Below are positions 20,358-28,775 of a DNA stretch of 64,000 nucleotides, in pieces (within the stretch, counting starts at the first letter, position 1; every line of letters begins with the position of its first letter). Under the pieces are notes generated by a model that did not search any database, was not told the DNA's origin, and saw nothing but the letters and a program-made list of their open reading frames with translations. Source of the stretch: Promicromonospora sp. AC04 (GTDB lineage Bacteria > Actinomycetota > Actinomycetes > Actinomycetales > Cellulomonadaceae); assembly GCF_003058225.1 (NCBI RefSeq), contig NZ_QBUG01000002.1, positions 496,001 through 560,000 on the forward strand. Direction: 5' to 3'. The translations under genes were made by a program, and so were the position numbers.

Positions 20358-22952
20358 TCAGCGGTCCAGGCCCTCCAGGGAGCCGAAGCACACCAGCGGC
20401 ACCGGCTCGGGCTCGTCCGCGAGCGCCGCGGCCAGCGCGGCCTCGGGGTCGTCCGTCGCGCGCAGGTGGGCGTGGAACCGTGGCATCACGCGGGCGGCGA
20501 CGGCGTCGGACAGCGGGCCGACGGACGCCACCACGGCGCGGGCGCCGAGCCGCAGCAGCACCGCCGTCAGGCCGAGCACCTCGCCGCCGACCACCTGGGA
20601 CGAGCCGCCGACCTCGCACGCCGACAGGATGATCACCGACTCGGGCAGCCGCGTGCCGTCGAGCTCGTGCGCGAACAGCGGTCCGTCGGCGAGGTCGACC
20701 GAGGCGAAGAGCGGGTTGTCGGCGTCGTGCCGGCCGTGGGTCGCCAGGTGCACCACATCGTGGGTCGCGAGCGCCTCGCGTACGGCCGCGGTGGTCGCGG
20801 CCGCGCCGGTGAGGACGGTGGCGCCGGACCACACCTCGCCCACCGCACGCACCTCGCTCGCGCCGAGCGTCACGCTCGGGCCGTGCGCGGCGAGGAGCCG
20901 GTGCCCGTCCCCCGGCCGGGGGTGGGCCCGTCCCCGCGCCACGTACGAACGCATGGTCGTCCGCCTGCCCCGTCGGGACGGGAGCGCGGTCCACGGCACG
21001 CCGACCAGCGGGTCCCGGCCCACGACGTACAGCGGGCCGTCCACTTCGAGGGGCAGGACCAGGAGCCTGTCGAGCGCGTCGAGGTTGCGCGTCAGGGAGC
21101 GACGGGCGGCGTCGCGCAACGCGGTGGGCACGCGGTCGTTGGCGCACACCCCGAGGTCGGCGCGCGCACGCAGCACCCGCTCGGCGACGTCGGCCCGTGG
21201 CCCGAGGGCCACGGTGCGGGCGCCGTGCGCGTCCAGCCGGACGCACCGCAGGACGCCGTCGATCACCAGGAAGTTCGCGACGACGGCGCCGTCGTCGCGG
21301 GCGGTGAGCAGGTCGCGCACCTCTGCCACGGTGGCGGGACGCTCCTCGGTGACTGCTTGGTCGCCGGGGCGGTGCCAGGCGCGTTCGCGGGCCGTCGCCA
21401 GGAGCCTGTGGGAGCGGTCGAACAGGTGCTTGCGCTCTGCCGCGCTCTCCCGGTCAGTGAGCGTACGCGCCCGGACGACGAGACCGCGGGCCTCCGTAAG
21501 GAGCGCCCCGACCGCCGGATCGTCCGGCGCGGCGGCCCACCCTGCCCCGGCGAACGTGGCGCGACCCCGTTCGACCGCCTCGAACAGCGCGGCAGGATGA
21601 CCGGTGCGCAGGGCGGCTTCGACGTCGGTCCGTTGCAGGTCGGCGCCGTGCGCCGCGGCGGCGGTCACGGACTCCACCGAGCCGAGGCCCATGCGGTGGT
21701 CGGCCAGGAGCCCGAGGCCGACGCGCACTGCGGCCACGCCCGCCGTCCGGTCCCCCGACGCGAACGCGATCTGCGCGAGCACGGTCTGCTGCTGGACCCG
21801 AGCGGTCAGCGGGGCATCGGCCATGCCGTCCGGGAGGTCGGCGAGGACGGCCCGGGCGGCGCCGACGTCGTCGGCCAGGAGGTACCAGTGCGCGGCTACG
21901 AACCGCGCGGACAGGCCGGGGTGCTGCCCGAGCAGCGGGTCCACCTCGTCGCCTGCCTCGGCTGCTTCGAGCGCCTGCTCGGCGCGGAGGCGCGCGTCGC
22001 TCGGCACGGGCGCCTCGCCGCGCCGGATCGGCAGGAGGATCGCCTCGAGCTCCGCGACGCGTGCGACAGCGGCCCGCTGCGGGTGGCCGACGCCGGCGTA
22101 GTACCGCCGGGCGAAGGCCGCGCTGGCACGAGCCTCGTCCCAACGGTGCAGCGCCATGAGGCAGCGGGCGCGGAAGTACTCGGCCTCCGCCCGGTGCTGT
22201 GCGCGTCCCGGGACCACCATGCGGGAGATCGCCTGGGTGAGGACCTGCTCCGCGTCCTCGAGCAGACCCGCCTCGTAGAGGACGGCGCCGCGGCCGATGT
22301 CGAGCACGCCGTCGGCGCGCTCCGGGTCGACGGCGCGGGCGGCGGCCATGGCCTGCAGCGCACCCGGCAGGTCCCCGAGCGCGTACCGCACGAAACCCGT
22401 GTTGTGCAGGGCGAGGGACGCGACGCTCGACAGGCCTGCGCGCCCCGCCTCCTCGTGGCAGGCGTCGAAGTCACGCAGCGCCGCGTCGAGCCGGCCGAGC
22501 TCGATGGCGGTCGCGCCGCGGTTGAGCAGGGCCGTCGCCAGGTCCCGCTTGGGGAGCACGACCTGTTCCGCGAAGACCTGGTCGAAGGCCGCCATGGCGT
22601 CGGTGAGCCGGCCGGCTCGCTGCAGGAGCAGGCCGCGCGCCCCGGCGACGATGGCCGCCAGGCGCGCCCGGGCCTGTGACGGCGCGGTAGCTGCACGGCC
22701 CTCGGCGTCGTCGAGCAGGGCGAGCGGCTTGTCCAGCGTGTCCTCGACCGCCTGGACCGCCACTGCCTCCCCCATCAGGGAGCGCACGATGCCCTCGGCC
22801 CAGCGCTCGTGGTCCGCTGGAGTGAGACCGGCGGGGTCGACGGCTCGGAGCCGGTCGAGCACCTCGCGGAACCGGGGCAGGGCGTCGCCGGGCCGCGACC
22901 GGGAGCTCAGATCCCGGGCGGCCAGCAGCTCCGCCTCGAGTTCCGGCCACAT
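20358..22952 (-). CDS. TPR-CHAT caspase-like protein, copy 1
   Basis: An 864-aa protein. The N-terminal two thirds is helical with tetratricopeptide-like repeats ([20 protein letters not shown] and [20 protein letters not shown] are clear). The C-terminal CHAT peptidase domain (about 560-864) has the catalytic pair His739 in HLATHG and Cys779 in LSACEVGG. No signal peptide or membrane segment. Start: ATG 22952 after AAGGGG; an in-frame ATG at 22973 is possible. It is the last gene of the sigma/S8/CHAT unit, with its own putative promoter (22998-23027), and reads toward rplJ. CHAT domains are caspase relatives; the substrate is unknown. Confidence 0.85.
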
Positions 22953-22997
22953 GGTTGCCCCTTGTTTCTCCATGCCCTGGTGGGCATCGGGCGGGAC

Positions 22998-23027
22998 ACA
23001 ATAGCGGGGCATAGTGGGTTATGTCAC
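22998..23027 (-). promoter_or_regulatory. candidate promoter of CHAT copy 1
   Basis: Minus-strand GTGACA (23022-23027), 18 bases, TATTGT (22998-23003) in an AT-richer pocket of the 166-bp gap between the two CHAT genes. It would start transcription about 18 bases before the upstream ATG and allow copy 1 to be expressed independently of the rest of the unit. Confidence 0.45.
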
Positions 23028-23118
23028 TGTCCGGTGCGACGGCGCAGGTCAGGGGCTTGAGCTCGGCGACTGCGGGCTGCCTCGGCGACGTCCCTCGACG
23101 GACAACCTCGACGGCGGA

Positions 23119-25737
23119 TCAGGCGACTGCCAGCCCTTCGACCGAGCTGAAGCAGACGAGCGGCACCGGCTCGGCCACGTCCGTGAGGGCCGCGGCGAGC
23201 GCCGCCTCCGGGTCGTCGGTCTCGCGGAGGTGGGCGTGCAGGCGGGGCATGACGCGGGCGGCGAGCTCGTCGGAGAGCTTGGCGACCGACGCGATGACCG
23301 CTCGGGCTCCCAGGCGCAGGAGGACCGACGTAAGGCCCAGCAGCTCACCGCCGAGCACCTGGGTGGAACCGCCGACCTCGCACGACGACAGGATCACCAC
23401 CGACCCCGGCAGCGGCGTCCCGTCGAGCTCGTGGGCGAACAGCGGACCGTCCGCTAGGTCGATCGAGGCGAACAGCGGGTTGTCGGCGTCGTGCTGGCCG
23501 TGGGTCGCGAGGTGCACGACGTCGTGCGTGGCGAGGGCCGTGCGGACGTGCTCGGTGACGGCGTCATCCCCGGTCAGCACGGTTACGCCGGCCCACTGCC
23601 GCCCGACGGCATGAGCCTCGGCGGCACCGTGCGTCACTCCGGGTCCTGCGGCCGCGAGCAGGCGGCGCTTGCCCGAGGGGCGCGCGTGGGTGCGGCCGCG
23701 GGCGACGTAGGAGTTCACGGCGGTACGCAGGCCGCTGCGGGACGGGAGGACCGTCCACGGGACTCTGAGCAGCGGTTCGCGAGCCACGACATAGAGGTCG
23801 CCATCGGCCTGCAGCGGGGCGAGCAGGATGTCGTCGAGGATCTTGAGGTTGCGCTCCAGCGACGAGCTGGCGGCGGCGCGCAGGGGCGCCGGGATCAGGT
23901 CGTTGGCCGCCATGGCGAAGTCCGCCGCTATGCGGCGGACCCGCTCGGTCACGTCCTGTGCCGGTCCGACGTCGACCGTCGTCACGCCCACGGCATCGAC
24001 CCGGACACAGCGCAGCACCCCTCCGAGAACGACGAAGTTGGCCACCACCGCGGTGCCGTCGCCGCGCTCGGCGAGGACGCGCTGCAGCTCGCGGGCCGTT
24101 GCGGGGCGCTGTACCGCGCCCGCGTTCCCGGCGTGCCGCCACGAGCGTTCCCGCACCTCGTCCTGGATACGGCGGGCGCGGTGGGTCAGCCGTTCACGCT
24201 CCCTGGCCTCGGCCGCGCCGAGCTCGCGGGCCCTCGCCAACAGGCCGCGTGCCTCGGTGAGGAGCGCGGCAGCCTGCGGATCGTCTGGCGGAGTGACGCG
24301 ACCCGTGCCGGCGAACGTGGCGCGGCCTCGCTCCAACGCGTCGAACAGGGCGGCGGGACGGCCTGTGCGCTCGGCGGCATCGACGTCGACGAAAGTCAGG
24401 TCGACGCCGTGCGCTGCCGCAGCCGTGACGGACTCGACCGAGCCGAGCCGGCTGCGGTGATCGGTGAGAAGGCTCAGGCCGGCACGGACCGCGCGCAGCC
24501 CCCTCGCACGGTCGCCCTCGGCGAACGCGAGCTCTGCCTGGACTGTGTAGTGCTGGACCCGCACGGTCAGTGGAGCGCTCGTCAGAGTGCGGGGCAGCTG
24601 GGCACGGACGGCGCGGGCGGCATCGAAGTCACCCGCAAGGACGAACCAGCGCGCGGCAACCAGCCGCGCGGTGTGCCCCGGGTGATAGCCAAAAGTGGGA
24701 CCGGCCTCGTCGCCGACCTCGGCAACCGTTATCGCTTGCCGCGCCCGACGACGAGCGACTACCGGCGAAAAACCGTTCGAAGAGCGGAGAGCCTCCGACA
24801 GCAACGACTCGAGCTCAAGGACCCTGGCCAGCGCCGCCATCGACGGTTGCCCACCGCGCTCGAATCGCCGACGCGCCTGGGCCGCCTGCGCGCGCGCCTC
24901 CTCGAAGCGATGAAGGCCCATCAGGGCTCGCGCTCGGAACCATTCAGCCACTGCGTGGTCGCTGCGAAGCGCTGCACGCGCCAGTCGCTCGGTGGCCGTC
25001 GACAGCAACTGCTCGGCATCAGCAAGCAATCCGCTCTCGAAGAGCACCTCAGCGCGACCCAGCTCCGGGATGCCGTCGTCCTGGTCCGGAGCCGCGAGGC
25101 GCGCCTTCTCCATCGACAGCAGAGCGCCAGGCAGGTCGCCAAGCGTGTACTGCGCATAGCCGAAATTGTGCAGAGCGAACGAAACGAACTGCGGGTTGCC
25201 CAGGGCTACGGCGTGCGCTCTCGCCTCCTCGTAGTCACGAAGGGCCTCGGTGAACTCCCCGAGCATGCCGAACACTGCGCCCCGGTTCAGGTAGGCGATC
25301 GCCAAGTCACGGTGGTCAGTGAGGCCCGGTGTCCGCACCGCTTCGGTGAGGTGCCCCAGGGCTTGGCGCAGGTTCCCCGACCTGGAGTGGAGCACACCAC
25401 GCTGGACGAAGATCAGGCTCGACATCGACGGATCGAGAGCCCCGCTCTCGATCTCCGCTGCCCGGTCGCACAGCGCGAGAGCGTCGACAAGCGACCCAGT
25501 CAGTGCATGAACCGGATTCGACAGACCCAGATAGCTCCGCACCATCAGCTCGGCCCACTGCGCTCTGCCCGTCGGGTCGAGCTGGTCGGGATCCAACCCG
25601 GCCAGGTCGGTCAGGAGCGCGCGGAAGTCGGATTCCGCGGACGACCACTTCGCTCGCGCATGCAGGTCGCGAGCGACTTCCAGTCGCTCGAACAGCCGCA
25701 CCCACGGGCCACTACGTGTGGTCGCCTCCACGTTCAC
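23119..25737 (-). CDS. TPR-CHAT caspase-like protein, copy 2
   Basis: An 872-aa paralogue of the next gene, with the same architecture: TPR-like N-terminus (LAIAYLNRGAVFGMLGEFTE and [20 protein letters not shown]) and a CHAT domain with His746 in HLATHG and Cys786 in LSSCEVGG. I start it at GTG 25735-25737, 10 bases after the S8 stop, because the longer frame would lie inside the protease gene. The last 130 residues are almost the same as copy 1, while the N-terminal half is much more diverged and visibly less GC-rich (about 24600-25700). Probably cytoplasmic; substrate unknown. Confidence 0.83.
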   Translation of the reverse strand: MNVEATTRSGPWVRLFERLEVARDLHARAKWSSAESDFRALLTDLAGLDPDQLDPTGRAQWAELMVRSYLGLSNPVHALTGSLVDALALCDRAAEIESGALDPSMSSLIFVQRGVLHSRSGNLRQALGHLTEAVRTPGLTDHRDLAIAYLNRGAVFGMLGEFTEALRDYEEARAHAVALGNPQFVSFALHNFGYAQYTLGDLPGALLSMEKARLAAPDQDDGIPELGRAEVLFESGLLADAEQLLSTATERLARAALRSDHAVAEWFRARALMGLHRFEEARAQAAQARRRFERGGQPSMAALARVLELESLLSEALRSSNGFSPVVARRRARQAITVAEVGDEAGPTFGYHPGHTARLVAARWFVLAGDFDAARAVRAQLPRTLTSAPLTVRVQHYTVQAELAFAEGDRARGLRAVRAGLSLLTDHRSRLGSVESVTAAAAHGVDLTFVDVDAAERTGRPAALFDALERGRATFAGTGRVTPPDDPQAAALLTEARGLLARARELGAAEARERERLTHRARRIQDEVRERSWRHAGNAGAVQRPATARELQRVLAERGDGTAVVANFVVLGGVLRCVRVDAVGVTTVDVGPAQDVTERVRRIAADFAMAANDLIPAPLRAAASSSLERNLKILDDILLAPLQADGDLYVVAREPLLRVPWTVLPSRSGLRTAVNSYVARGRTHARPSGKRRLLAAAGPGVTHGAAEAHAVGRQWAGVTVLTGDDAVTEHVRTALATHDVVHLATHGQHDADNPLFASIDLADGPLFAHELDGTPLPGSVVILSSCEVGGSTQVLGGELLGLTSVLLRLGARAVIASVAKLSDELAARVMPRLHAHLRETDDPEAALAAALTDVAEPVPLVCFSSVEGLAVA

Positions 25738-25747
25738 CCCATCGTCT

Positions 25748-27214
25748 TCAGTTCGGGATCGGCAGTCCCGTCGCCTGGTGTGCAGCCTCCCACGCCGCTG
25801 CAACCCGATCAGCCGTGCCCTCCGCGATCCGGCCGTTCAGCAAGTGCTGGGCCAGCTCTCCGGCAAGTACCGGCGAGGAGAACGAGGTCCCGCTCCACGT
25901 GGCGAACCCGCCCGTGAAGTCGTCCGGATCGACTGACTCCCGGCCCCCTTCGGACAGCCGCTGCGGCAGCAGGGCTCCGTCGGCAGTAGCCGGCATCGTG
26001 CTGTGCACGTTGGTACCCGGGCGCACACTCGTCACCCATGGTCCGTCGTTGGCAAATTCCGCGAGCGTGCCGTTTGGGTTGGACGCCGTGACCACGAGCA
26101 GTGGAGTGTAGTCCGCCCGCAGGTCACGGATGTCCAGCGGCTCTGCTCGGCCGTCCACACGCCGCACGTGGGGCGCCCAGGCCGCAGGGAACACGGGCCG
26201 ATCCCCGCCGTCGTTGCCGGCCGACGCGACGACAAGGACACCCGCCCGGCGAAGGTCGCGCAACACACCGCGGAGCATGCCCTCATAGTCGTCGTCCTCG
26301 AGAACCTCGGGCTGGAAGCCGAGAGCCAGCACTACGACGTCGACCGGGGTGTAGCCATCGATACCGGAAACGCCCCGCAGGTGGTACTCCAGCAGCCTCT
26401 CGAGCGAGCGCACCAGGTCCCACTCGCGGACCTCCCCATCCGTGTACATCACCCGAACGGGAAGGATCGCGGCGTCCGGGCACACCTGGTGCACCACACC
26501 CGCGATGAATGTCCCGTGCCCCACGTACGGCGCCAGCTCCGTCGACGGCTCGTGGCCCGTCGCCGGCTCGTCGTCGGTGAAGGTGCCGATCGGCCGTCCG
26601 TCGATCTCGGCATCCCGGATAACGACGTGCGAGCGGTCGAACCATGGGTGCGCGCCGATCCCGGTGTCGACCAGGGCGACGACCGGACGTTGCACTCCGT
26701 CGTCGGAGAGCCACGGCGTAGGCCCGGTTCCGAGGACCCTTCGCGGGACGGTGCCGACATGAAGAGACGGCTCCCGGTCCCCTGGCTGCGCAACGCCAGG
26801 CCTGTTCTGGTGTCCCTGCAACACATGGTCCAACCCAATCCGCTTCCGGTCCTCCTCGCCGGCCAAGGACGTAACGTCGTCAAGGAGGTCCCACACGTCC
26901 GCGTCCTCGCTACCCCCTGCGGCCACGTGCAGCGCCACGCCCGTCCGCGGCACCTCCGACCTCATGGGCGCCGAGGGAAGCTCCTCCTCCTCCAGCAAGA
27001 GGCCGCGGTCGGCCGCCCGCTCGCGGAGCAGCGCCAGCAGTCCGTCGTCCTCCCCGGGTGTGCCGCGCACGATCAGCCGGTCCGCGACGTACCGCGTGGG
27101 TGCCAGCCGGATGTCACGCCGACAGGGCGCCTCAGCCGGATCGAGCTCCCGGACCGGACGCCATCCTCCGGCGTGGTCCCGTACACGCAGTCCTTCGGGC
27201 ATGGGCTCACTCAC
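25748..27214 (-). CDS. cytoplasmic subtilisin-like serine protease (S8)
   Basis: A 488-aa protein, GTG start with AGAGG eight bases upstream. The full catalytic set is visible: Asp183 (VALVDTGIG), His233 (VGHGTFIAGVV), oxyanion Asn334 (VASAGNDGG) and Ser444 (WSGTSFSSPVLAG). The first 170 residues are not catalytic, are acidic in part (about 70-130) and lack a signal peptide or membrane segment, so it should act inside the cell, perhaps after removal of this region. It lies 100 bp after the 186-aa gene and 10 bp before CHAT copy 2. Substrate unknown. Confidence 0.9.
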   Translation of the reverse strand: MSEPMPEGLRVRDHAGGWRPVRELDPAEAPCRRDIRLAPTRYVADRLIVRGTPGEDDGLLALLRERAADRGLLLEEEELPSAPMRSEVPRTGVALHVAAGGSEDADVWDLLDDVTSLAGEEDRKRIGLDHVLQGHQNRPGVAQPGDREPSLHVGTVPRRVLGTGPTPWLSDDGVQRPVVALVDTGIGAHPWFDRSHVVIRDAEIDGRPIGTFTDDEPATGHEPSTELAPYVGHGTFIAGVVHQVCPDAAILPVRVMYTDGEVREWDLVRSLERLLEYHLRGVSGIDGYTPVDVVVLALGFQPEVLEDDDYEGMLRGVLRDLRRAGVLVVASAGNDGGDRPVFPAAWAPHVRRVDGRAEPLDIRDLRADYTPLLVVTASNPNGTLAEFANDGPWVTSVRPGTNVHSTMPATADGALLPQRLSEGGRESVDPDDFTGGFATWSGTSFSSPVLAGELAQHLLNGRIAEGTADRVAAAWEAAHQATGLPIPN

Positions 27215-27314
27215 AGCAGTACCTCTCGATCGATAGGCGTACCTGGTAGACCCCCCACCGCGCCCCTCGGCCGGTCTGAAGGTCTGAAGGTCAGATATTC
27301 AAGAACTCAAGAGT

Positions 27315-27875
27315 TCATAGCTCGATAACCGGCGTGCTCACGGCTCCGCCACCGCCGTCGGTCCGGCGGACCACCAGGCTCGCGCGACCGCGCTCGACGG
27401 AGTCGAAGGAGAACCGGCCGTCCTCGTCGGAGGCGACGGTGACGACGTCGACCCCTGGTCGATGCAGCTCAACGGAGAGGCCCGCCGCCGGGGCGGCCCA
27501 GCCGTCGATCCGAACCCGGCCCCCGGGAGACGGAGACAGGCTGATCATGACGGTCAGCGAGTCGTGCGTGAAGGTGATGGTCTTCGCCTCGGCGGGCGAA
27601 GCGTCGTCGGCGCGTGCGGCTGCGGCGGCCCCCCGGACGCCTGCGAGCGGTGTGTCGAGATAGACGGCCTCCATCAGGTCGGCCTCGAGGCCGGCCAGCG
27701 TGATCGCGAACAGCGACCGCTCCACGAGCTCGTCCGGGACGGGGTCCACCGCCTCCACCACGTGGGCGAGGCGGGTCAGCACAGCGCCGTCCCCGGCGTC
27801 CAGCACGCCCTTCGGGTCGAACGAGAGGTCCCCCACGGCCTCGTCGTCCTTGTTGGGTTCCGGCGTCAGATCCAC
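27315..27875 (-). CDS. 186-aa protein coupled to the ECF sigma gene; candidate sigma regulator
   Basis: Not a family I can name. The GTG start overlaps the sigma-factor stop (stop TGA at 27866-27868) behind AGGGGGACTTCTC, so translation is coupled. It is 186 aa, soluble, with no transmembrane helix, unlike membrane anti-sigma factors. The N-terminal half is helical (PDELVERSLFAITLAGLEAD). After an Ala-rich linker, the C-terminus looks like a small beta-sandwich of carboxypeptidase-regulatory type (VTVASDEDGRFSFDSVERGR). Position and coupling suggest a cytoplasmic anti-sigma or adaptor, possibly a protease substrate; that is inference. Confidence 0.6.
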   Translation of the reverse strand: MDLTPEPNKDDEAVGDLSFDPKGVLDAGDGAVLTRLAHVVEAVDPVPDELVERSLFAITLAGLEADLMEAVYLDTPLAGVRGAAAAARADDASPAEAKTITFTHDSLTVMISLSPSPGGRVRIDGWAAPAAGLSVELHRPGVDVVTVASDEDGRFSFDSVERGRASLVVRRTDGGGGAVSTPVIEL

Positions 27876-28618
27876 GAGAAGTCCCCCTGCTCGTCGAGGA
27901 TGGTGCGCAGCTTCGCCAAGCAGCGGCCACGAGTCGAGCCGATGGAGCCCATCGGCATTCCGATCGCCGCCGAGATGTGCCGGTAGTCCGGCCGATCGGC
28001 GAGCGAAACCAGACGCAGCAGTTCCTGGCAGCGTCTGGGAAGTTCCTGGAGCGACATCCACAGGATGCGATCGCGTTCGTCGCGCAGCACCTCGGCGTCG
28101 GGCAGCGGATCCTTTGCCGGGAGCGCCATCGGATGCTCCGGGCTGTCGTCCGGGAGCTCCGTGCGGCGCTTCTCGTCGTCACGGTGCTTGCGCACCGCCT
28201 CCCAGGCGGCGCGCTTCGCCGTCACCAGGAGCCACTTCAGGACGGCCTTCGGCTCCGCGATCGTCTCCGCGTGCCGTACGAGCGCCACCCAGGTGCTCTG
28301 CACGACGTCCTCTGCGGCGTCACGGTCGACCCCCTGTGCGCGGACCGTGTGCCAGAGCAGCGGCGTTGCCTCGCGGACCAGCTCACCGAGTGCCTGGTGG
28401 TTGCCCGCGCGGTACTCGGTCAGCGCGATCGCGGCGCGATCGCCGAGCGTGAGACCGGACCCGTCGACGTCGGGCAGGGCCTCCCTTGATCCTGTCATTG
28501 CACCACGGGATTCTCTGCTGGCGGTTGTTTCCACTCCCGGTAGGGGACGTGGAGCACTTGGACCAGCCGAGTCTACGGCCGAGCGCGCGGATCCGGGGAG
28601 GTAGAAGGCTGTGCCCAT
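27866..28618 (-). CDS. ECF-type RNA polymerase sigma factor
   Basis: 250 aa. Region 2 is seen at about 95-150 (DRDAAEDVVQSTWVALVRHA, KAVLKWLLVTAKRAAWEAV). Region 4 with its helix-turn-helix is at about 185-240 (LPRRCQELLRLVSLADRPDY, ISAAIGMPMGSIGSTRGRCL). Start: ATG 28616-28618, preceded by GAGAGGAG at ideal spacing; the first 40 residues are Pro/Ser-rich and an internal Met41 lacks a good site. It heads the unit with the 186-aa gene, the S8 protease and both CHAT genes, and follows the rplA terminator. Its regulon probably includes itself. Confidence 0.9.
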   Translation of the reverse strand: MGTAFYLPGSARSAVDSAGPSAPRPLPGVETTASRESRGAMTGSREALPDVDGSGLTLGDRAAIALTEYRAGNHQALGELVREATPLLWHTVRAQGVDRDAAEDVVQSTWVALVRHAETIAEPKAVLKWLLVTAKRAAWEAVRKHRDDEKRRTELPDDSPEHPMALPAKDPLPDAEVLRDERDRILWMSLQELPRRCQELLRLVSLADRPDYRHISAAIGMPMGSIGSTRGRCLAKLRTILDEQGDFSWI

Positions 28619-28665: not shown

Positions 28666-28692
28666 AGACAAGAGGGGCGAACACCCGGTTTC
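28666..28692 (-). promoter_or_regulatory. candidate ECF promoter of the sigma/S8/CHAT unit
   Basis: Minus-strand GAAACC (28687-28692), 17 bases, GTCT (28666-28669) resembles the AAC-type -35 and GTC-type -10 of many ECF promoters. It sits 48 bases before the sigma ATG and just after the rplA terminator. Autoregulation would be typical. One-site evidence only. Confidence 0.35.
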
Positions 28693-28717
28693 GATACATG
28701 GTCGCGGATGAGAAATC

Positions 28718-28756
28718 AAGAAGGCCCGCACCCCGTTACGGGGTGCGGGCCTTCTT
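28718..28756 (-). terminator. terminator after rplA
   Basis: Perfect 17-bp arms (28718-28734, 28740-28756; core AAGGCCCGCACCCC) with a five-base loop, 20 bases past the rplA stop. It insulates the rplKA transcript from the sigma-factor unit. A few Us occur within the following GATTTCTC. Confidence 0.8.
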
Positions 28757-28775
28757 GCGCTCAGGAGCGCTCGGA

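What the first reader, a model, noticed from the sequence alone, without database searches (positions are those of the whole stretch)
20358..28618. Sigma factor / 186-aa protein / subtilase / twin TPR-CHAT module placed between rplA and rplJ
Five co-directional genes with tight or overlapping junctions join an ECF-like sigma factor to two classes of intracellular protease: one S8 and two caspase-like CHAT. CHAT proteins are known in conflict and cell-death contexts. A TPR-CHAT protease, a sigma factor and a cleavable regulator also occur together in type III-E CRISPR loci. Here no CRISPR is present, the proteases lack signal peptides, and both dyads and the S8 catalytic residues are intact. 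I infer a proteolytic relay that releases a sigma factor, or executes suicide, in response to a signal read by the TPR arrays.
Basis: partly seen in the sequence, partly recalled or inferred. Interest (0 to 1): 0.85.

Follow-up and report, generated by a model that had tools for sequence, protein, structure and literature searches.

The report
Caspase-linked sigma-factor switch in actinobacteria
A five-gene bacterial cassette pairs a gene-switching sigma factor with a likely inhibitor and two kinds of protein-cutting enzyme, and its conserved parts suggest that a caspase-like enzyme cuts the inhibitor at one fixed arginine to release the sigma factor.

Summary
In detail: five minus-strand genes between rplA and rplJ encode an ECF sigma factor, a 186-aa protein (P186), an S8 subtilase and twin TPR-CHAT proteases, catalytic residues intact. 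The linkage is already in print: a review describes it for group ECF54 and proposes proteolysis without an anti-sigma factor; I could not score ECF54 membership. New here: (1) P186 directly follows sigma in 78 of 80 named loci and shows no peptidase domain; distant homologues in its slot match anti-sigma models weakly. (2) Its disordered linker holds an arginine in 128 of 128 distinct sequences, followed by G/S/A/T in 127. (3) A promoter motif, about TGTATC-N16-[CG]CTC, heads 125 of 165 distinct module loci in relaxed form (control 2). (4) In 396 genomes all 48 with the CHAT protein also have the sigma factor. (5) The CHAT model most resembles separase and Csx29. Best reading: CHAT cuts P186 after that arginine and frees a sigma factor that turns up its own module, a CRISPR-free counterpart of the type III-E relay. 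Binding and cleavage are inferred; suicide and phage defence are untested.

The parts
28672..28698 (-). predicted autoregulatory promoter: TGTATC (-35-like), 17 nt, CCTC (-10-like, continuing TTG)
   Evidence: Motif found de novo upstream of sigma genes; window site; ATGTATC and CCTCTTGTC identical in 13 of 13 genus genomes aligned. In the own genome a stricter pattern has 3 hits, one of them this site, against 4 control hits.
28720..28757 (-). terminator-like hairpin after rplA, separating the module from the ribosomal genes (approximate bounds)
   Evidence: inverted repeat followed by a T-rich run, read by eye in the sequence; not scored by a tool
27866..28618 (-). ECF sigma factor, 250 aa (with a genus-conserved N-terminal extension)
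   Evidence: sigma70-ECF E 4.6e-17, Sigma70_r2 E 2.1e-8; signature GMPxGSIGxTRxRCL shared with relatives
27315..27875 (-). P186: putative soluble anti-sigma factor; helices 27-43 and 50-73, disordered linker 76-88, beta-sandwich 98-186
   Evidence: AlphaFold2 mean pLDDT 84.2; directly downstream of sigma in 78 of 80 named loci; homologues in lineage f68 match NCBIfam antisigma in 6 of 8
27633..27635 (-). codon of Arg81, invariant linker residue, candidate P1 of a cleavage site (VR/G)
   Evidence: R in 128 of 128 distinct sequences, next residue G/S/A/T in 127; linker 76-88 has pLDDT below 50
25748..27214 (-). S8 subtilase, 488 aa, no signal peptide evident by eye
   Evidence: Peptidase_S8 E 2.2e-18; Asp, His, Asn, Ser columns 92 of 92 rows
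23119..25731 (-). CHAT2: TPR-CHAT cysteine protease, 870 aa from the GTG start
   Evidence: CHAT E 8.3e-24; His and Cys 110 of 110 rows; AlphaFold2 mean pLDDT 90.4; best Foldseek hits separase, then DdvA and Csx29/TPR-CHAT
20358..22952 (-). CHAT1: tandem paralogue of CHAT2, 56% identical, catalytic dyad intact
   Evidence: two full-length copies in 12 of 13 genus genomes

Best explanation
A cytoplasmic, protease-triggered sigma-factor switch. P186 is a soluble anti-sigma factor, translationally coupled to the ECF sigma factor, that holds it inactive through its N-terminal helices. The TPR array of the CHAT protease reads a signal, still unknown. The activated CHAT domain, a separase/Csx29-like caspase fold, cuts P186 in its disordered linker after the invariant Arg81. 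P186 falls apart, the sigma factor is freed and transcribes its own operon from the TGTATC-type promoter, making more sigma, P186, subtilase and CHAT: a self-amplifying loop for which no other target stood above chance in this genome. The serine protease (S8 here, perhaps a trypsin-like enzyme behind the same motif in Cellulomonas-type loci) most likely completes the degradation of P186 or acts on the proteases. Shown by computation: conserved linkage, invariant catalytic residues, shared promoter motif, invariant arginine in a low-confidence linker, weak anti-sigma match in distant homologues. Inferred: sigma binding, cleavage, the order of steps, the signal, and that this sigma factor uses the motif.
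For: P186 lies directly downstream of sigma in 78 of 80 loci chosen by sigma alone; in 45 of the 78 an automatic start choice gives a 4-nt overlap. A P186 profile scan of 396 genomes hit 33, all among the 53 sigma-positive ones; of 20 of these loci fetched at length 18 have sigma adjacent. In lineage f68 a longer P186 homologue sits between sigma and CHAT. It matches NCBIfam antisigma in 6 of 8 members (best E 5.8e-4) and a putative anti-sigmaE model in 2 of 8, and shares linker and beta domain with P186 (hhalign probability 96.7%, E 3.4e-10). Arg81 is present in 128 of 128 distinct sequences, next residue G/S/A/T in 127, inside a linker with pLDDT below 50. All 48 CHAT-positive genomes of 396 are sigma-positive; 5 sigma-positive genomes lack CHAT at the threshold. 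In 14 genomes with a sigma locus lacking proteases, an S8-CHAT pair stands alone elsewhere in 8, and all 8 pairs carry the relaxed promoter motif. Promoter: strict motif 69 of 109 hits at module heads, reversed control 0 of 9; relaxed motif in 125 of 165 distinct-sigma groups against 2 for the reversed control. CHAT model: best Foldseek hits human separase (E 2.6e-15), also Csx29/TPR-CHAT chains (E 6.9e-13 to 5.2e-9 among the 50 listed). Csx29 cleaves Csx30, which inhibits an ECF sigma factor (PMC10028731, passages). That separase cuts after arginine is recalled, from no call.
Against: None of 61 short P186 members matches an anti-sigma model in NCBIfam at E 1, and Pfam names mainly the beta domain. 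Foldseek of the P186 model lists only beta-sandwich proteins and others, no anti-sigma domain among the 50 shown. The f68 matches are weak (Pfam zf-HC2 E 0.04-0.06 and RskA_N E 0.047, below cut-offs, in 3 of 7). hhalign joins f68 and short P186 only from the linker onward, not over the helices. Arg81 is equally constant where CHAT and S8 are not adjacent, so it does not point to CHAT by itself. In the 14 split genomes the relaxed motif stands before sigma in 6 and before the protease genes in 8, but before both in only 1 and before neither in 1, so one sigma factor driving both loci is not shown within a genome. Eleven of 28 genomes scanned with a stricter motif have no hit at all, among them three close relatives. 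The published model has no anti-sigma factor. In one summary alignment R81 is listed as 90% or more rather than invariant; I take this as misalignment, since a pattern that does not fix the position finds R in 100 of 103 fragments and the other 3 have R in the linker by eye.
Confidence: 0.55

Rival explanations
1. Published ECF54 view: no anti-sigma factor; the neighbouring proteases degrade the sigma factor itself and keep it low until a signal stops them.
For: Stated for ECF54 in PMC8999054 section 3.3 (passage). Protease genes share the promoter motif with sigma genes.
Against: It leaves P186 unexplained, although P186 is the most constant partner and carries an invariant linker arginine. 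Distant P186 homologues match anti-sigma models weakly. Sigma-driven synthesis of its own destroyer would be negative feedback; possible but not required.
Confidence: 0.15
2. The cutter of P186 at Arg81 is the serine protease (S8, or the trypsin-like enzyme that stands in for it), and CHAT acts upstream or has other substrates.
For: S8 catalytic residues invariant in 92 of 92 rows. In Cellulomonas-type loci without S8 nearby a trypsin-like gene with GDSGS lies divergently behind the same motif; trypsin-like enzymes prefer arginine or lysine (recalled).
Against: S8 is less constant than CHAT: of 80 named loci 56 have CHAT and 43 have S8 within the fetched stretch. The f68 S8 proteins read begin with a signal-peptide-like stretch (by eye), so they would not meet a cytoplasmic P186.
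Confidence: 0.15
3. Arg81 is not a cleavage site; the linker is a docking or sigma-contact peptide, and P186 is a scaffold or co-activator joining sigma and proteases.
For: Arg81 is also kept in P186 copies without adjacent proteases and in duplicated copies. No cleavage can be shown by sequence.
Against: One invariant basic residue followed by a small residue within an otherwise variable, disordered linker is what a protease site looks like.
Confidence: 0.15
4. A defence or suicide module: CHAT and S8 kill the cell on infection and sigma only regulates them.
For: CHAT proteases occur in defence systems (recalled). PADLOC BovA matched weakly (E 5.9e-5 and 6.2e-3) and a PADLOC subtilase model at 9.1e-5.
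Against: Position is largely inherited beside ribosomal genes within the family; the module is present in all 13 genus genomes; no target beyond the module stood above chance in the own genome. None of this excludes it.
Confidence: 0.1

Closest known systems
ECF54 group of ECF sigma factors (Casas-Pastor 2021 and Huang 2015, neither held; known to me through passages of PMC8999054)
   Same: ECF sigma factor with conserved subtilase, CHAT and carboxypeptidase-labelled neighbours; proteolytic control proposed.
   Different: The account in the review has no anti-sigma factor. Here the carboxypeptidase-labelled gene is most likely P186 (inference), which matches only a carboxypeptidase-regulatory-like beta domain and is proposed to be the anti-sigma substrate.
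Type III-E CRISPR relay Csx29-Csx30-CASP-sigma (Craspase/CASP)
   Same: TPR-CHAT protease, a two-domain inhibitor with a flexible linker or loop, an ECF sigma factor (PMC10028731, passages). CHAT model resembles Csx29.
   Different: No CRISPR protein among the five gene products. Csx30 has 565 residues, is cut between 427 and 429 and tolerates alanine substitutions; P186 relatives are about 145-200 aa with an invariant arginine. An S8 or trypsin-like protease is added.
Calp system CalpL-CalpT-CalpS (type III CRISPR; search listing only)
   Same: A protease triggers a transcriptional response (listing abstract); that CalpT regulates the sigma factor CalpS is recalled.
   Different: Lon-type protease with a SAVED domain and a cyclic oligoadenylate signal (listing abstracts); different protease family.
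Eukaryotic separase
   Same: Best Foldseek hits of the CHAT model (E 2.6e-15). Cleavage after arginine is recalled.
   Different: Low TM-scores (about 0.3-0.4 by query) over the whole chain; different substrates and biology.
Canonical soluble anti-sigma factors
   Same: Operon position, overlap with the sigma gene; f68 homologues match NCBIfam antisigma.
   Different: Window P186 has two confident long helices and no anti-sigma domain recognised by profile or fold.

Membership tests
ECF54 | neighbours with subtilase, CHAT and carboxypeptidase(-regulatory) domains | tested here: met
   window (the carboxypeptidase-regulatory match is below Pfam's gathering score); of 80 named loci 42 hold P186+S8+CHAT, 14 P186+CHAT, 1 P186+S8, 21 P186 only, 2 none
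ECF54 | sigma factor falls in the ECF54 phylogenetic group or scores with its group model | not testable with these tools
   no ECF-group models held; no Geodermatophilus amargosae locus (reference organism) among the 80; source papers not held
ECF54 | no anti-sigma factor (as in PMC8999054) | tested here: inconclusive
   P186 is a candidate anti-sigma factor; binding not testable
Type III-E CRISPR protease relay | Cas7-11 (gRAMP) effector and CRISPR array | not tested
   no CRISPR protein among the five module proteins; the rest of the window and genome was not searched for one
Type III-E CRISPR protease relay | TPR-CHAT protease of the Csx29 family | tested here: not met
   NCBIfam Csx29 model 15.2 bits for CHAT2 against a cut-off of 300, not listed for CHAT1; similarity of fold only
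Anti-sigma factors | recognisable anti-sigma domain | tested here: inconclusive
   f68 homologues 6 of 8 hit NCBIfam antisigma at E up to 1, best 5.8e-4; short P186 0 of 61
Anti-sigma factors | binds and inhibits the cognate sigma factor | not testable with these tools
   needs pull-down and transcription assays
CHAT (clan CD) proteases | CHAT domain with intact His-Cys dyad | tested here: met
   Pfam CHAT above gathering score in both; His, Cys 110 of 110 rows

The most novel reading that the evidence does not exclude
A widespread, CRISPR-free, separase-like protease switch: a TPR-CHAT caspase homologue cuts a small anti-sigma factor at one invariant arginine in its linker and frees a sigma factor whose main target is its own module. 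The type III-E CRISPR relay would then be one CRISPR-coupled version of a general bacterial way to turn a caspase signal into transcription.
Probability: 0.4. Interest if true: 0.85.

Novelty: new variant of a known kind. Interest (0 to 1): 0.63.

Why it matters
The gene neighbourhood was known, with proteolytic control proposed but no substrate site. Naming the small partner as a probable anti-sigma factor, one residue as the candidate scissile bond and one promoter as the output makes it directly testable. If right, bacteria outside CRISPR use caspase-like proteases to release sigma factors, which links transcription control to the protease fold of separase and could give a compact, arginine-specific protease/reporter pair.

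Tried and rejected
Position by rplA/rplJ as part of the mechanism: rejected. 28 sigma rows, mostly Promicromonosporaceae and Cellulomonadaceae, form one clade at that site; six more rows are MAGs of other groups; one (L089) is a distant lineage at the same gap; at least 3-4 changes. A row was scored as at the site if rplA or rplJ lay in the fetched stretch.

Twin CHAT as essential: rejected. Most fetched loci have one CHAT; two full-length tandem copies occur in 12 of 13 genus genomes, and the 13th (G484) shows two partial matches. In a quick tree with the few genus copies included, each copy forms its own clade.

Wide regulon: not supported. Own genome 3 hits against 4 reversed-pattern controls; in 28 genomes 30 hits, 19 of them at module loci, 7 controls, 11 genomes without a hit. 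Of 30 motif sites not before a module gene that were looked at, several lie before trypsin-like genes; for many no gene was called.

One promoter shared by both loci of a split genome: expected, but found in only 1 of 14 genomes with the relaxed motif (sigma locus 6, protease locus 8, neither 1; reversed control 0).

PADLOC weak hits were not followed. Foldseek of P186 gave no informative family. The VIA-align library was not available. A sequence search of the CHAT domain alone against solved structures found nothing useful.

Papers: PMC8999054 and PMC10028731 seen as passages; all others as search listings; the ECF54 source papers were not seen. Statements that something was not found in print rest on searches of one open-licence library only.

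Left out of counts: L090 has no sigma hit and is not among the 60 loci. Of the 33 P186-positive genomes, 20 were fetched at length (others had been fetched before or were not fetched). L283 was missed by the start rule and is not in alignment A5; read it has the same layout with GLRT in the linker. L288 holds no sigma gene. The named and unnamed collections share some genomes, so the profiles were partly trained on the same genomes; distinct counts are.
Full report
Observation. The five genes are present as described on the minus strand, between rplA and rplJ. From the promoter side they are an ECF sigma factor (27866-28618), P186 (27315-27875), an S8 subtilase (25748-27214), CHAT2 (23119-25731) and CHAT1 (20358-22952). 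Family searches confirm the sigma, S8 and CHAT assignments. Sigma and P186 overlap by 10 nt. The two CHAT proteins are 56% identical over 864 columns.

What was already known. A 2022 review (PMC8999054, passages) says that group ECF54 sigma factors have conserved neighbours with carboxypeptidase, subtilase and CHAT domains, and that proteolytic control without an anti-sigma factor is proposed. The two source papers are not held. The window fits this context; I could not score it with an ECF-group model.

Conservation of the module. With profiles built from the unnamed-genome loci (which share some genomes with the named set), P186 is directly downstream of sigma in 78 of 80. Of the 80, 42 hold P186+S8+CHAT, 14 P186+CHAT, 1 P186+S8, 21 P186 only and 2 none; some stretches are cut by contig ends. 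In one set of 396 genomes of the phylum, 53 carry the sigma factor (E<=1e-30), 48 the CHAT protein (E<=1e-40) and 33 P186 (E<=1e-6). By comparison of the printed lists every CHAT- and P186-positive genome is among the 53. Fisher p is about 1e-56 for sigma and CHAT, without correction for kinship.

Split genomes. Fifteen genomes with a sigma locus lacking nearby proteases (Lentzea, Actinokineospora and kin) were asked for; one was not held. All 14 searched encode a full-length or nearly full-length CHAT elsewhere. In 8 an S8-CHAT pair stands there without sigma or P186, and two (G478, G480) also have a complete separate module. Of 20 P186 loci from the phylum scan fetched at length, 18 have sigma adjacent; L259 and L268 do not.

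Catalysis. Over 110 CHAT rows (104 distinct) the His and Cys never vary. Over 92 S8 rows (86 distinct) the Asp, His, Asn and Ser never vary. Cellulomonas-type loci lack S8 nearby. Several carry a divergent trypsin-like gene with an intact GDSGS; of eight such proteins aligned, five end in a PFTE repeat and one in PFTQ.

P186. Pfam sees a carboxypeptidase-regulatory-like beta domain in 53 of 61 members at E 0.1, below its gathering score in the window protein. This is not a peptidase domain, and I suspect it is the carboxypeptidase of the ECF54 descriptions (inference). AlphaFold2 gives long helices 27-43 and 50-73, a linker 76-88 below pLDDT 50, and a confident beta-sandwich. Arg81 in that linker is present in 138 of 138 rows, 128 of 128 distinct, followed by G, S, A or T in 127 of the 128. 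It is kept in duplicated and orphan copies. One tool alignment lists it as 90% or more rather than invariant.

Anti-sigma evidence. In lineage f68 the gene between sigma and CHAT is a longer homologue (and L283 in 140). It matches NCBIfam antisigma in 6 of 8 members, best E 5.8e-4, and a putative anti-sigmaE model in 2 of 8. Pfam gives sub-threshold zf-HC2 or RskA_N hits in 3 of 7. Its linker reads GVRS, SVRA or GLRT, and its beta domain aligns with P186. Against this, no short P186 hits an anti-sigma model, its fold search is uninformative, and the profile alignment does not extend over the helices.

Promoter. A dyad count upstream of sigma genes returned GTATC-N16-GCTC. The strict pattern TGTATC-N14..18-[CG]CTC hits 109 times in 3.46 Mb of loci. 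Of these, 69 lie within 500 nt upstream of a module gene, mostly sigma (44) or S8 (24), against 0 of 9 for the reversed pattern and 0 to 3 for four other controls. The strict form marks 62 and the relaxed form 125 of 165 distinct-sigma groups; the reversed relaxed control marks 2. In the host genus ATGTATC and CCTCTTGTC are identical in 13 of 13 genomes while the spacer varies. In the 14 split genomes the relaxed motif stands before sigma in 6 (five Lentzea-type loci and one other) and before S8 in all 8 S8-CHAT pairs, but before both in only one genome and before neither in one. So the motif marks sigma genes in some lineages and protease genes in others. Genome-wide it is largely confined to the module: 19 of 30 hits in 28 genomes, 7 controls, 11 genomes without a hit; own genome 3 hits, 4 controls. 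This fits an autoregulatory loop in the window lineage.

Protease. The CHAT2 model (mean pLDDT 90.4) matches human separase best (E 2.6e-15), and Csx29/TPR-CHAT chains from E 6.9e-13, with modest TM-scores. A transmembrane anti-sigma factor, DdvA, also ranks high (rank 5) with a low TM-score (0.25); I take this as a repeat-array match. Csx29 cleaves Csx30, an inhibitor of an ECF sigma factor (PMC10028731, passages). Separase cleavage after arginine is recalled.

Mechanism. The simplest account of these facts is that CHAT cleaves P186 after Arg81 and so frees the sigma factor, which turns up its own module. The role of the serine protease and the signal read by the TPR array are open. Shown by computation: conserved parts, invariant residue, promoter motif, co-occurrence. 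Inferred: binding, cleavage, release, use of the motif by this sigma factor.

Position and duplication. The rplA-rplJ site is shared by one clade of mostly Promicromonosporaceae and Cellulomonadaceae and reached separately in other lineages. The CHAT duplication is seen throughout the host genus.

Verdict. A real, phylum-wide module whose linkage was known. The anti-sigma assignment of P186, the candidate cleavage site and the promoter are the parts I did not find in the library searched. The ECF54 source papers, which I could not see, may hold promoter predictions.

Noticed in passing
L067:12861-14657 (+), with relatives in L070, L071, L133, L135, L138, L145, L271: Trypsin-like protease genes (GDSGS intact), all found through a copy of the promoter motif; five of the eight end in a tandem PFTE repeat, one in PFTQ; role of the tail unknown.
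   Followed up: partly
L080 (from 14549 +), L163 (same sequence), L083, L148: Small arginine-rich ORFs of 69-77 aa behind a copy of the promoter motif, similar to each other; may be a further target or a chance reading.
   Followed up: partly
L151 and L277 (same gene order and proteins), L264: Tandem amplified modules: three P186, two S8, two CHAT and one sigma gene in a row (two P186 copies in L264); every P186 copy printed keeps the linker arginine.
   Followed up: partly
L279, L281, L282, L286 (lineage f68): S8 proteins there begin with a signal-peptide-like stretch (by eye), unlike the window subtilase, although they sit next to the sigma, P186-like and CHAT genes.
   Followed up: no
L299, between rplA and the sigma promoter: An insertion of more than 1 kb whose end reads like a transposase (IS30-like by recall) lies between rplA and the module promoter in one genus-mate, leaving the promoter intact.
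   Followed up: no
L174, L166: In these Lentzea and Actinokineospora loci the sigma-P186 pair lies near a groEL-like gene (named by recall from its sequence).
   Followed up: no
window 28496-28618 (minus), sigma N-terminus: The first ~40 residues of the sigma factor are conserved in DNA and reading within the genus, ahead of the usual ECF start; function unknown.
   Followed up: no
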